NCBI GenBank assembly: GCA_003644825.1
Contig: QNDJ01000139.1
Span: 1 to 5,545 of the forward strand
Source: B21-G16 sp003644825 [NCBI: Candidatus Zhuqueibacterota bacterium]
Lineage (GTDB): Bacteria; SM23-31; B21-G16
Reading direction: 5' to 3'
Length of the DNA stretch: 5,545 nucleotides
Positions 1 through 5,534 of this stretch are shown piece after piece. Under the pieces are notes generated by a model. The model saw nothing but the letters and a program-made list of their open reading frames with translations, ran no database searches and had not been told where the DNA came from. The stretch's first letter is position 1. Every line of letters starts with the position of its first letter. The position numbers and the translations under genes are program-made.

Positions 1-1707
1 CTCATCTCCGTATATGATTATGTGAGATGTTTTCAGGTTATTGGCAGAGATATTACAGAAAGAAAACAAGCTGAAAAAGAATTAATACGCCTATCTACTG
101 CTATTAGAACAACCTCTGATAGCGTGGTAATATGTGACCCTGAGTTTAAGATAGTTGACTGTAATGATGCGGCTCTACAGATTTATGGAACAAAGAACAA
201 GAATGACCTGGTCGGGAAAAATTGTTTTGATTTTTTAGCGCCTGAAGAAGTAGAGCTCGCCTTAAAAGATAAAGATGAACTGATGAAGAAAGGATTCTTA
301 AGAGGTAGAGAATATAGAGCTTTTAAAAAGAATTGTGAAATATTCCCGGTTGAGGTAAGTATATCTCTTATGAAAGATAAAAATAACGAGCTTACGGGTT
401 TTGTTACAGTTACCAGAGACATCTCTGAAAGAAAAAAGCTTGAAGAATCTGTTAGATTAAGCGAAGAAAAATACCGAACTTTAGTGGAAAATATTGATAT
501 AGGGATTTTCAGAAATACCGGTATAGATGGAAAAATTATCGAGGTGAACAGGGGATGGTTAAAAATTTTTGGTTATAGCAGTAAAAAAGAAGTCCTGGGG
601 AAAAACGTTATAGAGGTCTACTGCGACCCAGAGGATAGAAAAGAATTAAACAAAAAGATGGTAAATAAAGGTTTTGTTAAAAATATGGAAGTGAACTTGA
701 GAAAAAAAGATGGTACTCCTTTTATAGGTTCTATTACTGCTGTTACTATTAAGGATGATAAGGGAAATATTAAATACTACGATTGTGTTATTGAGGATAT
801 TACCGAAAGAAAGAATACGGAAAATGCTCTCTGGAGAAAAAATAAATTGATTCTAAAAAAGAATAGAGAACTACACAAAGCTATGAAAGAACTGAAATCT
901 GCTCAGAATATGTTGATTCAATCAGAAAAAATGGCATCCATCGGAACCCTCGCAGCTGGAGTTGCTCATGAAATTAATAACCCTTTGAGTTATGTTAGCA
1001 GTAATATAAAATATATAAAAAAATATGTAGAAAAAATGGAAAATTTCATTAAAGAACTGCCTGAAGTTTTTTCCAAATTTCCGTTCTATTCAGAGTTTTC
1101 ATCAGAGTTTCAGAAGATAAAAAACAGTTATAAAATAGATTTCATTCTGGAAGACCTAACCTCAGCGATAAATGAATCTATTGAAGGTGCAGAAAGAGTT
1201 AAAAAGATTGTGCAGGATTTAAAAAGTTTTTCACACCCTGTTGTAGAAAGTATGAGTTATGCCAATATAAATGAAGGTATAGAAACAACCCTTAATATTG
1301 TATGGAATGAACTTAAATATAAAGCCGAAGTCAAAAAGGAACTGGGTGATCTCCCGGAGGTCTACTGCAATATTCAGAAATTAAATCAAGTTTTTATGAA
1401 CATCCTTGTTAATGCTGCTCAGGCAATCGAAAATCACGGCATCATTAAAATTAAAACCTATGTAAAGGGTGAGAATGTTTTTATTGAAATAAGCGATACA
1501 GGATGCGGTATCCCTGAAAAAAACCTGCATAAGATATTTGACGCTTTTTATTCCACAAAAGAAATTGGAAAAGGAACAGGATTAGGGTTAAGTATTGCTC
1601 AAAAAATAATTAAAGAACACAGCGGCATAATAAACGTTAAAAGCAAAGTGGGAAAAGGAACAACATTTACTATCAGGATTCCTGTTAATGGTGGTAAAGT
1701 GAAATAA
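1..1707 (+). CDS. Multi-PAS sensor histidine kinase, 5'-truncated by the window edge
   Basis: Cytosolic-looking histidine kinase of the HPK4 type; numbering is from base 1, 568 codons visible. The frame is open to the window edge, and residues 1-22 are the end of a PAS domain (GRDITERK), so GTG at 22 is not a credible start and the gene begins upstream. Two complete PAS/PAC domains follow (about 31-146, ending RDISERK; about 154-271, ending EDITERK), then a helical linker (272-310). HisKA has the H-box AAGVAHEINNPL with phospho-acceptor His323. The HATPase has an N-box (Asn467, Asn471), G1 (DTGCG, 499-503), F-box (DAFYSTK) and an intact G2 (GKGTGLGL, 523-530), so it should be active. HisKA helix 2 (about 381-411) lies unusually far from the H-box. 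No transmembrane segment is visible, but the missing N-terminus could hold one. The signal sensed is unknown. The next kinase starts 31 bases downstream, probably in the same operon. Confidence 0.95.
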   Translation, partial: LISVYDYVRCFQVIGRDITERKQAEKELIRLSTAIRTTSDSVVICDPEFKIVDCNDAALQIYGTKNKNDLVGKNCFDFLAPEEVELALKDKDELMKKGFLRGREYRAFKKNCEIFPVEVSISLMKDKNNELTGFVTVTRDISERKKLEESVRLSEEKYRTLVENIDIGIFRNTGIDGKIIEVNRGWLKIFGYSSKKEVLGKNVIEVYCDPEDRKELNKKMVNKGFVKNMEVNLRKKDGTPFIGSITAVTIKDDKGNIKYYDCVIEDITERKNTENALWRKNKLILKKNRELHKAMKELKSAQNMLIQSEKMASIGTLAAGVAHEINNPLSYVSSNIKYIKKYVEKMENFIKELPEVFSKFPFYSEFSSEFQKIKNSYKIDFILEDLTSAINESIEGAERVKKIVQDLKSFSHPVVESMSYANINEGIETTLNIVWNELKYKAEVKKELGDLPEVYCNIQKLNQVFMNILVNAAQAIENHGIIKIKTYVKGENVFIEISDTGCGIPEKNLHKIFDAFYSTKEIGKGTGLGLSIAQKIIKEHSGIINVKSKVGKGTTFTIRIPVNGGKVK

Positions 1708-1738: not shown

Positions 1739-4225
1739 ATGAAAGAAAAGTTTGAAAACAAAAAAAATCAAAATGAAAAAATGAAAGAGTTAGAATACGG
1801 CATTAATATTCTTGATAAAGCTTTACTGAAACAGTTAGAGGCTATTGAGGCTTCCATTAATGGTATAGCAATATTTAATGAAACTGGAGAGTTCACGTTT
1901 CTTAACACTTCCTATGCTAAAATTTTTGGTTATAATGGTCCTGAGGAATTAATAGGTAAAAACTGGAGAGACCTTTATGACAAAGATGAACTTAAAGAAC
2001 TTGAAAAGAAAGTTATACCTGAATTCAGAAAGAAAGGCCGATGGAGGGGCGAAATATCAGGTAAAAAACTTAATGGGGAAAAAATTCATCTGGATATCTC
2101 TGTAGTCAGAATTGAATCCGGTGATTCTATATGTATCGCACGAGATATCACGGAGCAGAAAAAAGCTGAAGAAGAATTGAAAAAATACAAAGACCATCTT
2201 GAGGAACTTGTTGAAGAAAAAACCCTGGAACTGAAAAAAGTTAATCAAAAGTTAAGCAAAGAAAAAGAAAAACTGGAAAAATACCTCAATATTGCTGGTG
2301 TAATATTTGTCGTTATCGATTCCGAGCAAAGAGTAAGCCTGATTAATAAAAAAGGATGTGAGGTATTAGGCTATGAAAGGGATGAGATTATCGGGAAAAA
2401 CTGGTTTGAAAACTTTCTGCCAGAAAAAGTAAGGAAAGATGTAAAGGTTGTTTTTGAAGGACTAATGAAAGGGGAAGTTGAAAAGTACGAATATTTTGAA
2501 AACCCGATTATTACAAAGAGTGGAAAGGAAAGAATAATCGCCTGGCATAATACATATCTGACGGATGAAAAAGGAAAAATCATCGGCACTTTAAGTTCTG
2601 GAGAAGATATAACTGAACGAAAAAAAATTGAAAACGCTCTTCAAATTGAAAAGGCATACTTTGAACAGTTGTTTGAAAACGCTCCTGAAGGAATAGCACT
2701 AATTGATAATAATAGCAATATTCTACGCGTAAATAAACAATTTACAGAGATGTTTGGATATAAAATTAATGAAATAGCTGGTAAATCAATTGAGGAACTT
2801 ATTGTACCTGAAGAACTTCGAGAAGAAGGTCTTGCTCTTACTAAACAGACATTAAAAGGCAATTCAGTTACCTGTGAGTCTGTACGAAAAAGTAAAAATG
2901 GAAAACTAATTAATGTATCAATTCTTGGAACTCCCATAAAAATTGATCAGGAACAGGTTGCAATTTACATCATTTACCGAGATATTACGGAACGAAAAAA
3001 ATCAGAAAAAGCTTTAAAAGAAAGTGAAGAGAAATATCGTACATTGTTTAATTATATTGCTGACCCGGTCTTTATTATTGATAGGGAAACACATCGTTTT
3101 TTAGATTGCAATGAAACTGCATTAAAAGTGTATGGATATTCTATGGACGAATTAGTTAATATAACTCTAAAAGCAATACATCCACCTGAAGAATTAGAAT
3201 TAGTTGAAAAAAATATAAATAAAAAAATTACTCCATATCCATATACACATATTACAAAAGATGGAAAGAGTTTTCCTGTTGAAATACATACAGAAGAAAT
3301 TGAATATAAAGGCAGAAAAGCCTGGATAAGCATCGTAAGAGATATTACTGAACGGAAAAAAGCCGAAGAGGAAATTGAAAGAAAAAATAGAGAACTTGAA
3401 CTAACCCTCAAAAAACTTAAAGAAGTTCAGGAACACTTAATCCAGAAAGAAAAGTTAATTTCTATTGGCACCCTTGCTGCAGGTATTGCCCATGAAATAA
3501 ATAATCCTGCAGGATACATAAAAAGCAACCTTAATTCTATCATCAGGTATTCTAACAAACTACTTAATGTTTGTAAATTAATTGTGGAAAATACCAATGA
3601 TGATAAAATAAAAAAAATAATGAAGGAAAATAAGGTTAGTTATCTTTTAACTGCCAACAAAGAGGCAGCAGAAGAATCCATTGAAGGTGTTGAAAAAATA
3701 AGTGATATTGTTAAAAATATGCAGGGGTTTGCAAGAAGTGATCTGATTGGCATTGGATACCATGACATAAATGAAGCTATTATCAGCACTGTTAATGTTT
3801 TATGGAATGAACTAAAATATAAGGTAGAAGTAATACAGGACCTGGGAAAAATCCCAGAAATTAAATGTAATATTCAGAGATTAAATTTAGCATTTATGAA
3901 CATACTATTAAACAGTATTCAGGCAATTAAAAAGAAAGGTAAAATCTTTATAAAAACGTATAACGACGATAAATACGTAATAATTGAAATAAAAGACACA
4001 GGTATAGGTATCCCTGAAGAAAATCTTGATAAAATAACAAATGCATTTTTTACTACAAAGATGGCAGATAAACATATCGGTTTAGGTCTAACTACTGCAA
4101 ATAAAATAATTACAGAACATTCGGGAAAACTTAAAATTAATAGCCAGACAGGTAAAGGAACAACTGTAAAAATTTATTTACCTGTGGATGAAAAATCTTT
4201 TAAAGAGGAAAATTTTTACTATTAA
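1739..4225 (+). CDS. Histidine kinase with four PAS domains and an altered ATP-lid G2 box
   Basis: Complete 828-residue HPK4-type kinase with no signal peptide or membrane segment. Four PAS/PAC domains end in DITE(R/Q)K at residues 136, 290, 415 and 535 (spans about 33-140, 184-295, 308-420, 429-541). A coiled coil with LEELVEEKT separates PAS1 from PAS2, and another (541-575) leads to HisKA. The H-box is AAGIAHEINNP with His585. The HATPase has N-box Asn721/Asn725, G1 DTGIGIP (753-759) and F-box NAFFTTK. Its G2 box reads DKHIGLGL (777-784), lacking the usual first glycines and threonine (GKGTGLGL next door), so ATP-lid function may be weakened. From WNELKYK to the final PV, about 75 of 128 residues match the upstream kinase by hand count, marking paralogs. 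ATG 1739 is the first start after an in-frame TGA at 1700; only a weak AGG (1728-1730) precedes it. ATG 1781 (Met15) has no Shine-Dalgarno and is less likely. Confidence 0.95.
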   Translation: MKEKFENKKNQNEKMKELEYGINILDKALLKQLEAIEASINGIAIFNETGEFTFLNTSYAKIFGYNGPEELIGKNWRDLYDKDELKELEKKVIPEFRKKGRWRGEISGKKLNGEKIHLDISVVRIESGDSICIARDITEQKKAEEELKKYKDHLEELVEEKTLELKKVNQKLSKEKEKLEKYLNIAGVIFVVIDSEQRVSLINKKGCEVLGYERDEIIGKNWFENFLPEKVRKDVKVVFEGLMKGEVEKYEYFENPIITKSGKERIIAWHNTYLTDEKGKIIGTLSSGEDITERKKIENALQIEKAYFEQLFENAPEGIALIDNNSNILRVNKQFTEMFGYKINEIAGKSIEELIVPEELREEGLALTKQTLKGNSVTCESVRKSKNGKLINVSILGTPIKIDQEQVAIYIIYRDITERKKSEKALKESEEKYRTLFNYIADPVFIIDRETHRFLDCNETALKVYGYSMDELVNITLKAIHPPEELELVEKNINKKITPYPYTHITKDGKSFPVEIHTEEIEYKGRKAWISIVRDITERKKAEEEIERKNRELELTLKKLKEVQEHLIQKEKLISIGTLAAGIAHEINNPAGYIKSNLNSIIRYSNKLLNVCKLIVENTNDDKIKKIMKENKVSYLLTANKEAAEESIEGVEKISDIVKNMQGFARSDLIGIGYHDINEAIISTVNVLWNELKYKVEVIQDLGKIPEIKCNIQRLNLAFMNILLNSIQAIKKKGKIFIKTYNDDKYVIIEIKDTGIGIPEENLDKITNAFFTTKMADKHIGLGLTTANKIITEHSGKLKINSQTGKGTTVKIYLPVDEKSFKEENFYY

Positions 4226-4230
4226 ATACA

Positions 4231-4250
4231 GGGATTGTCCAAAAAGTTAA
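4231..4250 (+). repeat. Left terminal inverted repeat of the intergenic element
   Basis: GGGATTGTCCAAAAAGTTAA; pairs with the right end at 4479-4498 at 18 of 20 positions (mismatches at positions 5 and 10). It begins 5 bases after the TAA stop of the upstream kinase gene. Confidence 0.8.
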
Positions 4251-4296
4251 TTATTATGTCATTTTGAGTTCTGATTGCTATGAAAAAATTTTCATT

Positions 4297-4341
4297 GGTC
4301 AGGCAGGGATGCCTGACCTACAACTTGTGCTCAATTACATT
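4297..4341 (+). repeat. Direct repeat copy 1 with perfect 9-bp hairpin
   Basis: First of two 45-base direct repeats with a 54-base period; 40 of 45 positions match copy 2, including 23 identical bases (4300-4322). It begins with an inverted repeat: GGTCAGGCA (4297-4305), loop GGGA, TGCCTGACC (4310-4318), a perfect 9-bp G+C-rich stem. No T-run follows the stem, so it does not look like an intrinsic terminator. The motif resembles REP-like palindromes. Confidence 0.85.
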
Positions 4342-4350
4342 AACAAGCCC

Positions 4351-4395
4351 GGCCAGGCAGGGATGCCTGACCTACAGTTTGTTCTCAATTATATT
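4351..4395 (+). repeat. Direct repeat copy 2 with 9-bp hairpin bearing one mismatch
   Basis: Second copy, 9 bases (AACAAGCCC) after the first. The hairpin is GGCCAGGCA (4351-4359), loop GGGA, TGCCTGACC (4364-4372), with one C/A mismatch in the third pair. The five differences from copy 1 are one in the stem and four in the 3' half, so the palindrome core is the best-kept part. Confidence 0.85.
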
Positions 4396-4478
4396 TGTAG
4401 AATGAGCATCTGAGCTCTTCTATTTAAAGTTTTCACCTGGCCTGGAGTGATCGGAGCTCATAATGATAGCAATAAATT

Positions 4479-4498
4479 TTAACTTTTTAGACATTCCC
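4479..4498 (-). repeat. Right terminal inverted repeat of the intergenic element
   Basis: Read on the minus strand it is GGGAATGTCTAAAAAGTTAA, matching the left end at 18 of 20 positions. It abuts the regulator's Shine-Dalgarno, which starts at 4499. An 8-bp inverted match also lies inside the element (ATTGCTAT at 4274-4281, ATAGCAAT at 4466-4473), at unequal distances from the two ends. Confidence 0.8.
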
Positions 4499-4506
4499 GG
4501 GAGGAG
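4499..4506 (+). promoter_or_regulatory. Strong ribosome binding site of the response regulator gene
   Basis: GGGAGGAG lies 8 bases before ATG 4515 and fixes that start. It is far stronger than the weak AGG before the second kinase. It begins at the first base after the element's right inverted repeat, so the translation signal is intact while everything upstream of it is element sequence. No convincing -10/-35 pair at normal spacing is visible in the element, although isolated -10-like hexamers (TAGAAT at 4398, CATAAT at 4459) occur. Confidence 0.8.
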
Positions 4507-4514
4507 TAAAAAAT

Positions 4515-5534
4515 ATGAGTCAGCATAAAATTCTTATAGTAGATGATGAGGAGAACATTTTAAGAGCCTTAAGAAGGTTATTTATTGAAACAGATTATGT
4601 TGTTTCTGTTGAAACAAGCCCTAAAAGAGCCCTTAAGTTACTGGAAAAAGAGAAATTTTCTCTGATTATTTCAGATCAGAAAATGCCTGAAATGACGGGA
4701 ATAGAAATGTTAAAAATCGCAAAAAAAATCCAGCCAGATGCAATAAGAATTGTTCTTTCCGGTTATGCAGAAGTTGGAATAATTATCTCAGCAATAAATG
4801 AAGGTGAAATATATAAATTTATTACAAAACCCTGGGACGATGATAATATGCTTCTTGAAGTAAAAAAGGCACTTGAGTATTATGAATTGAAAACAGAAAA
4901 AGAAGCATTAATGAAAAGAATAGAAGAACAAAATAAACAGCTTAAAAGATTTAATGAAGAGCTCGAAAAAAAGGTCGAAGAAAAAACAAGAGAACTGAAG
5001 CTGGCTTATTCTGAAAAAGTGTTGTTGACAGAACAACTCAAGGAAAAAGTAGAAGAACTTAAAGGCAGGGACATAATCCTACAGCACCTGCTCTCAATTC
5101 ACAGCCTCGATGAAACACTAAAAGTAACATTAAAAGTTATTAACAATATTCTCAAAATTAAGAAAGCTGTTATATATATTAAGGACTATAAAGACAATTT
5201 TCTTGAGGCTAAATCAGGAATCGGAACAGATGAAGAACCGAAAAAATCAGGTAAAATTGAATTAAATAACGAAGACAATGACATTGTAAAGGTCTTTAAG
5301 TCAGGTAAAATTATAAAAAACGATGAAGACAATTATCTACTTCAACCTATTAAAAAAGACCAGAAATCTCTGGGGGTTATAGAAATTGTGAGCAATGAAA
5401 AGATTACCGAAGGTTTTATCGAAAAACTGAGCGGGTTTACAAGTTTAGCAGCAATAGCAATCAATGATAGCATTATCAATGAGAATTTACCCGAAATCCA
5501 GAGTAAAATAGAAGAAATTTTAGGTGAGATATAA
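4515..5534 (+). CDS. Response regulator: REC, coiled coil and GAF, no output domain
   Basis: A 339-residue protein, complete, with ATG fixed by the strong Shine-Dalgarno at 4499-4506. The REC domain (about 4-122) has the acidic pocket Asp10, Asp11 and Glu12, phospho-acceptor Asp54 in SDQKMPEMTG, switch Ser82 in VLSGYAE, Tyr100, and Lys105 in ITKPW; all canonical residues are present, so it should accept phosphate. A charged coiled coil (about 124-186) includes VEEKTREL, like the linker in the upstream kinase. A GAF-like domain (about 186-322) follows and ends in a short acidic tail. There is no helix-turn-helix, HD-GYP, GGDEF or kinase module, so output is probably by protein contact or by ligand-modulated REC-GAF signalling. 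The REC sequence resembles those of RpfG-like regulators and of REC-GAF proteins in kinase clusters (family knowledge, not searched). The neighbouring kinases are the likely phosphodonors (inference). Confidence 0.93.
   Translation: MSQHKILIVDDEENILRALRRLFIETDYVVSVETSPKRALKLLEKEKFSLIISDQKMPEMTGIEMLKIAKKIQPDAIRIVLSGYAEVGIIISAINEGEIYKFITKPWDDDNMLLEVKKALEYYELKTEKEALMKRIEEQNKQLKRFNEELEKKVEEKTRELKLAYSEKVLLTEQLKEKVEELKGRDIILQHLLSIHSLDETLKVTLKVINNILKIKKAVIYIKDYKDNFLEAKSGIGTDEEPKKSGKIELNNEDNDIVKVFKSGKIIKNDEDNYLLQPIKKDQKSLGVIEIVSNEKITEGFIEKLSGFTSLAAIAINDSIINENLPEIQSKIEEILGEI
5522..5528 (+). promoter_or_regulatory. Possible Shine-Dalgarno for a following gene
   Basis: AGGTGAG, inside the end of the regulator gene, complements the 16S rRNA tail reasonably well and stands 7 bases before GTG 5536. 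A chance match in coding sequence is possible. Confidence 0.4.

What the first reader, a model, noticed from the sequence alone, without database searches (positions are those of the whole stretch)
4226..4514. MITE-like element lodged exactly between a kinase gene and its regulator's Shine-Dalgarno
The 268-bp block has 20-bp inverted ends (18/20) and starts 5 bases after a stop codon. Its last base touches GGGAGGAG. Removing it would leave about 21 bases between stop and start, so it looks like an insertion into a formerly tight operon. It may now change how much regulator is made relative to the kinases, by adding structure to the mRNA or supplying its own promoter.
Basis: partly seen in the sequence, partly recalled or inferred. 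Interest (0 to 1): 0.6.

Follow-up and report, generated by a model that had tools for sequence, protein, structure and literature searches.

The report
REP repeats nested in MITE-like insertion
A 268-base non-coding repeat, made of a transposon-like inverted-repeat frame around two palindromes of a family found dozens of times in this genome, sits between a sensor-kinase gene and a response-regulator gene; it is a lineage-specific example of a well-known kind of bacterial repeat DNA.

Summary
Window 4231-4498 (268 bp) has 20-bp inverted ends matching 18/20, starts 5 bases after the kinase stop and abuts GGGAGGAG; without it 21 bases would separate stop and start. As RNA it folds far better than shuffles (z -8.0).

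It is a mosaic. The outer arms recur in this assembly, as a pair, only as the ends of a different 124-bp intergenic element on contig C26. The core holds two palindromes of a genome-wide family: 51 exact GGCATCCNTGCC cores against 0 for the reversed control. On the minus strand 45 of 50 examined carry GTAG just before the palindrome, and the arms covary. These look like GTAG-tagged REPs in a decayed BIME-like arrangement. A 25-base REP pattern hit none of 289 other genomes.

The two full-length regulator relatives in the class (45-46% identity) have no such block upstream, but their upstream neighbour differs. I found no IS with these ends and no promoter or terminator above chance. Best reading: mobile-repeat insertion, perhaps an mRNA-decay barrier favouring kinase over regulator (inferred). 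Novelty is low.

The parts
4231..4498 (.). whole inserted block: MITE-like inverted-repeat frame around a REP core
4231..4257 (+). left terminal inverted repeat (18/20, 22/27; extends at lower identity to about 4275)
4472..4498 (-). right terminal inverted repeat (extends at lower identity back to about 4450)
4297..4321 (-). REP 1: GTAG tag plus palindrome, exact match to the 25-base family pattern
4351..4375 (-). REP 2: GTAG tag plus palindrome, one substitution in the 3' arm
4397..4420 (+). GTAG facing REP 2 at 21 nt, followed by a decayed palindrome (BIME-like head-to-head partner); its limits are by eye
4499..4506 (+). Shine-Dalgarno-like GGGAGGAG of the response regulator, directly after the element
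1739..4225 (+). upstream gene: multi-PAS histidine kinase, 828 aa
4515..5534 (+). downstream gene: response regulator with weak GAF-like C-terminal match, 339 aa

Best explanation
The block is a nested, non-coding mobile-repeat insertion. An outer miniature inverted-repeat element (about 27-bp ends, imperfectly paired to about 49 bp) carries a core of GTAG-tagged repetitive extragenic palindromes: two intact REPs in direct orientation and a decayed facing one. It sits just behind the kinase stop codon and in front of the regulator's ribosome-binding site (position shown; that it arrived by insertion is inferred). Read through as RNA it should fold into one long closed stem from 4231 to 4498 with inner hairpins, leaving the Shine-Dalgarno about as accessible as in the joined-flank sequence (predicted). 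The most likely effect is that of intercistronic REPs and hairpins in general: a barrier to 3'-5' decay that stabilises the upstream kinase message relative to the regulator, with no promoter or intrinsic terminator of its own (inferred). I put about 0.45 on a measurable effect of this kind and about 0.4 on no appreciable effect.
For: Core family: 51 exact cores in the own genome against 0 for the reversed pattern; 81 matches of the covariance model at E<=0.01, of which four are the opposite strand of a place already listed, so 77 places (only 150 of 714 candidates were scored, and the model was built from 50 of these copies). GTAG directly 5' of the palindrome in 45 of 50 copies. 33 cells with changes on both sides against 9.0 +/- 2.3 in shuffles, 96.9% of cells paired, and slid registers far worse. 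21 of 44 GTAG-tagged copies have a facing CTAC 20-22 nt upstream, 16 at exactly 21, and no CTAC at any other distance in the 40 nt looked at. 0 of 50 lie inside an ORF of at least 100 aa. Ends: paired ends on C26:4984-5107, left arm 88% over 34 nt and right arm 95% over 20 nt to it. Lineage-specific: 0 of 59 other genomes match the whole block; 0 of 289 others match the REP pattern at up to 2 mismatches against 47 in the own genome. Fold z -8.0 (+) and -6.6 (-); terminal stem pairing probability 1.0 at 4231/4498; first six SD bases unpaired at 0.68-0.91 with the block and 0.52-0.80 without. Passages of PMC5927463 describe hairpins that protect upstream operon segments (26 of 34 cases, 'akin to malEFG').
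Against: No target-site duplication is evident by eye at either end. The end pattern at up to 1 mismatch is not in itself above its control (6 places against 5 reversed), two of the six lie in long ORFs, and at 3 mismatches it is 4 against 3; the case for the ends rests on the exact pattern (3 against 0) and on the paired C26 element. No second copy of the whole composite exists in the assembly. The exact site is not shown empty in a close relative: only class-level relatives at 45-46% identity are held, with a different upstream neighbour. No intact RAYT close to these REPs was found. No expression data.
Confidence: 0.65

Rival explanations
1. The block is one ordinary MITE mobilised as a unit by a DDE transposase of an IS with the same ends, and the palindromes inside are incidental cargo that later spread or were captured.
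For: 268 bp without coding capacity and with 20-27 bp inverted ends fits the MITE size and end range given in PMC3733652 (70-300 bp, 15-30 bp ends); a second element with matching ends exists.
Against: The only other paired ends enclose a different 124-bp sequence; no full IS with these ends in the own assembly or the five other class genomes, nor an exact 20-base end in viral contigs; no target duplication seen by eye.
Confidence: 0.2
2. A fixed regulatory RNA (attenuator or cis element) evolved for this operon.
For: Position between kinase stop and regulator SD; very stable predicted fold on the transcribed strand (z -8.0).
Against: The core is a dispersed family; no Rfam match at gathering score in the window; no similar DNA in 59 other genomes; the reverse strand also folds well (z -6.6); the upstream gap of the G005 relative (about 343 bp) is unstructured (z -0.05) and in G003 the genes overlap.
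Confidence: 0.06
3. The outer arms are not transposon ends at all but the outermost palindrome of a mosaic repeat, or a terminator-like stem, as in the C26 element, whose ends run on into AAAA/TTTT.
For: C26 arms extend to AAAAGGGGCTGTC.../...GACAATCCCTTTT; no target duplication seen; the genome is full of small palindromic modules; in PMC3733652 section 7, GTAG-15 dimers of A. variabilis are described as lying within long palindromes.
Against: No T-run follows the window stem and no intrinsic terminator is called in 3900-4700.
Confidence: 0.25

Closest known systems
GTAG-tagged REPs and BIMEs (Di Nocera et al. 2013, PMC3733652: abstract, part 1 of 8 of the text, sections 7, 15, 16 read; Nunvar et al. 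2010, PMC2817692: passages)
   Same: Short palindrome with unpaired GTAG at one end, dozens of copies, outside genes, often paired in opposite orientation at fixed spacing, arms covarying between subfamilies.
   Different: Stem sequence GTCAGGC/GCCTGAC found in none of 289 other genomes; two copies here are in direct rather than opposite orientation; no intact flanking RAYT seen.
GTAG-15 dimers of Anabaena variabilis lying within long palindromes (PMC3733652, section 7)
   Same: REP dimer nested in a larger inverted-repeat frame.
   Different: Different sequences; here only one framed case plus one frame without REPs was found.
Bacterial MITEs (RUP, NEMIS, ERIC, Nezha and others, as listed in PMC3733652)
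   Same: Size, terminal inverted repeats, no coding capacity, intergenic, folds as RNA.
   Different: Only two places with matching paired ends, different lengths, no target duplication seen, no parent IS found.
Intercistronic REP/hairpin mRNA stabilisers such as malE-malF (Dar and Sorek 2018, PMC5927463: passages; Newbury et al. 1987: seen in a reference list only, content recalled)
   Same: Stable hairpins directly behind the upstream stop within an operon, without a U-tract.
   Different: No expression data here.

Membership tests
GTAG-tagged REP | short palindrome present in many copies in the genome | tested here: met
   51 exact cores, 0 reversed control; 77 model places at E<=0.01
GTAG-tagged REP | unpaired GTAG at one end | tested here: met
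   45 of 50; the tag lies outside the 12-nt pattern used to find the copies
GTAG-tagged REP | palindromic arms maintained by compensatory change | tested here: met
   33 cells changed on both sides against 9.0 in shuffles; the four inner pairs are fixed by the search pattern and say nothing
GTAG-tagged REP | mostly outside genes | tested here: met
   0 of 50 inside an ORF of at least 100 aa; 44 of 50 had no such ORF on at least one side within the stretch held, so gene orientation could be read for only 6
GTAG-tagged REP | cognate RAYT gene flanked by the same REPs | tested here: inconclusive
   Two Y1_Tnp genes. C338 is IS200-type (NF033573 84.2 bits, cut-off 55; REP_Tyr_transpos 36.1, cut-off 80) and is flanked by another palindrome module. 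C167 is a RAYT-like remnant (51.8 bits, cut-off 80) at a contig end, with a different GTAG palindrome inside. The assembly is 84% complete.
BIME | REPs in alternating orientation at regular spacing | tested here: met
   Family: 21 of 44 with a facing CTAC at 20-22 nt. Window: one facing decayed copy at 21 nt plus a second REP in direct orientation
MITE | terminal inverted repeats, 70-300 bp, no coding capacity | tested here: met
MITE | multiple copies with the same ends | tested here: inconclusive
   one other element with the same paired ends
MITE | target-site duplication | tested here: inconclusive
   none evident by eye in the flanks printed; no systematic test
MITE | parent IS with the same ends | tested here: not met
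   not found in the own assembly or five class genomes; incomplete assemblies, and no search by transposase family was made
fixed regulatory RNA | conserved at the orthologous locus | tested here: not met
   no match in 59 other genomes; absent upstream of the two full-length class relatives, whose upstream neighbour differs

The most novel reading that the evidence does not exclude
Large palindromes act as landing sites for single-strand (HuH-type) REP transposition: REPs would preferentially insert into hairpin-forming frames such as this one, giving composites of two mobilisation systems that accumulate inside operons and re-set kinase/regulator ratios in an uncultivated lineage.
Probability: 0.12. 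Interest if true: 0.45.

Novelty: new member of a known kind. Interest (0 to 1): 0.22.

Why it matters
It extends GTAG-tagged REPs, with clear compensatory changes in the arms and a fixed head-to-head spacing, to a poorly sampled lineage, and shows one copy nested in an inverted-repeat frame at a kinase/regulator junction. If the block alters relative expression, it would be a simple case of repeat DNA tuning a two-component pair. The kind of element and the possible effect are both already known.

Tried and rejected
Fixed regulatory RNA: rejected as above. Promoter or terminator supply: 4 promoter-like sites against 3.0 +/- 1.6 and 0 terminator-like against 0.2 in shuffles for 3900-4700. Plasmids (blastn): no match. 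Viral contigs with the REP pattern and with the 20-base end: no match. Rfam, gathering scores: none. Genome-contig scan with the regulator: 80 loci kept, best 46-49% over about 160 residues, spread over many phyla; it did not name the organism, and I did not compare their upstream regions. Tandem-array idea for the repeat-rich contig stretches L038 and L040: TRF found no rows. The idea that the C338 palindromes are the same family as the REPs: rejected, different stems, and the module follows only 7 of 48 REP cores within 45 nt. The GGCATCCNTGCC core in the other five class genomes: 0, 0, 1, 2 and 3 matches, with 2 reversed-control matches among them in all, so no family there. Paper searches.

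Row dropped: of 51 cores, one search kept 50; by equal scores the missing one appears to be the C64:6411-6446 copy, identical to C64:7382-7417. One search printed 47 contexts because fewer loci had been fetched by then. In one search the window itself (L173) was left in by mistake and its rows are self-matches; the C26 locus also appears under four overlapping loci. A first attempt to hand in the report was sent back with a request to check it; the report was then checked against the calls and completed.

Full report
Observation. The block at 4231-4498 is real. It is 268 bp long, with 18 of 20 and 22 of 27 matching terminal bases; 40 dinucleotide shuffles of the region reached 11-15 of 20. It begins 5 bases after the stop of an 828-aa PAS/HATPase_c kinase and ends where GGGAGGAG, the presumed ribosome-binding site of a 339-aa response regulator, begins. 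Joining the flanks leaves 21 bases between stop and start. As RNA the region has an MFE of -107.3 kcal/mol against a shuffle mean of -66.3 (z -8.0); the other strand has z -6.6.

What it is made of. Searching the own genome (2.48 Mb, 493 contigs, 84% complete) with the whole block gave 48 matches; besides the window itself, all listed rows but one (C26) cover only inner parts of the query. These reflect two direct repeats at 4297 and 4351, each beginning with a palindrome. The core GGCATCCNTGCC occurs 51 times exactly, the reversed pattern not at all. In 50 aligned copies (one, apparently an identical copy, dropped) 45 have GTAG directly before the palindrome, outside the pattern used to find them. 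The outer arm pairs exist as GTCA/TGAC, GTCG/CGAC, CTCG/CGAG and AACG/CGTT, among others; pair counting gives 96.9% of cells paired and 33 cells with both sides changed against 9.0 +/- 2.3 in shuffles, 0 of 500 reaching it, while slid registers give at most 9. The inner four pairs are fixed by the search pattern and are not evidence. The counts of pairs with double changes (3) and of further pair types (8) are not above shuffles (337 and 358 of 500 reach them). Of 44 GTAG-tagged copies with 40 nt upstream, 21 have a facing CTAC at 20-22 nt, 16 of them at 21, and no CTAC at other distances: the head-to-head arrangement of BIMEs. A covariance model from the 50 copies finds 81 matches at E<=0.01, 77 places after removing four opposite-strand duplicates; 150 of 714 first-look candidates were scored, so this is a lower bound, and the training copies match by construction.

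The frame. The ends GGGNYTGTCYAAAAAG, exact, occur in the own genome only at the left end of the block and at both ends of a 124-bp intergenic stretch on C26 (3 places, reversed control 0) and in none of the other five genomes of the class. With one mismatch there are 6 places against 5 for the control, and two of them lie in long ORFs on C147 and C249, so single looser matches mean nothing; the argument is the paired arrangement on C26 (20 nt, 90% complementary, 92 nt apart) and the 34-nt 88% and 20-nt 95% similarities to its right end. No IS with these ends turned up. I see no target-site duplication by eye.

Age and distribution. The whole block matches nothing in 59 other genomes. The 25-base REP pattern at up to two mismatches occurs 47 times in the own genome and in none of 289 others; the short core has 6 matches in total in the other five class genomes, with 2 reversed-control matches. 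The two full-length relatives of the regulator in the class (G003, 46%; G005, 45%) have another response-regulator gene upstream, overlapping in G003 and about 343 bp away in G005; the G005 gap is unstructured (z -0.05). They are not close enough to count as a true empty site.

How it may work. There is no promoter signal above chance and no intrinsic terminator. In the predicted fold the terminal stem closes with probability 1.0, and the first six Shine-Dalgarno bases remain as open (0.68-0.91) as with joined flanks (0.52-0.80); the last two SD bases and the start codon are mostly paired in both. I therefore expect little direct effect on initiation and, if anything, a 3'-5' decay barrier protecting the kinase part of the message, as described for hairpins in operons in passages of PMC5927463. 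This step is inference.

Comparison. By tag, copy number, covarying arms, extragenic location and head-to-head spacing the core fits the GTAG REPs of PMC3733652 (abstract, first part of the text, sections 7, 15 and 16 read) and PMC2817692 (passages). Section 7 of the former describes GTAG-15 dimers lying within long palindromes in Anabaena variabilis, so nesting is not new. A cognate RAYT is not established: the two Y1_Tnp genes are an IS200-type gene with other palindromes around it and a RAYT-like remnant.

Verdict. A good observation of an ordinary thing: a MITE-like frame with a REP core, lineage-specific, at a two-component junction. New member of a known kind; the expression effect is open.

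Noticed in passing
L177 (G000:C167) 1-420: The contig begins in a RAYT-like remnant whose open frame contains in-frame GTAG-tagged palindromes of another stem (GTCAACCG TCT CGGTTGAC) and runs on into a stretch matching the DUF1156 anti-phage-associated model over part of its length, below its cut-off. It looks like REPs inside their own kind of transposase gene, next to or within a defence gene.
   Followed up: partly
L176 (G000:C338) 1-900: An IS200-type Y1 transposase gene (157-606, minus strand) has ATATCG(C/T)CCC..GGG(G/A)CTC and ATACCGCTCC..GGAGCTC palindromes on both sides (5 found); a similar module follows 7 of 48 REP cores.
   Followed up: partly
L038, L040, L041 and other repeat-bearing contig stretches: 44 of 50 REP cores have no ORF of 100 aa or more on at least one side in the stretch held; contigs C64, C306 and C340 hold long non-coding mosaics of REPs and other modules (such as CATTGCGAG..GAAGCAATCTC), which probably break the assembly.
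   Followed up: partly
L040 (G000:C64): Two REP pairs about 971 bp apart (6277/6411 and 7248/7382) look like a local duplication.
   Followed up: no
L036 (G000:C26:4984-5107): 124-bp element with the same ends as the window block, extended by AAAA/TTTT, lying before a gene that by recall resembles lpxB; it could be a bidirectional terminator or a MITE.
   Followed up: partly
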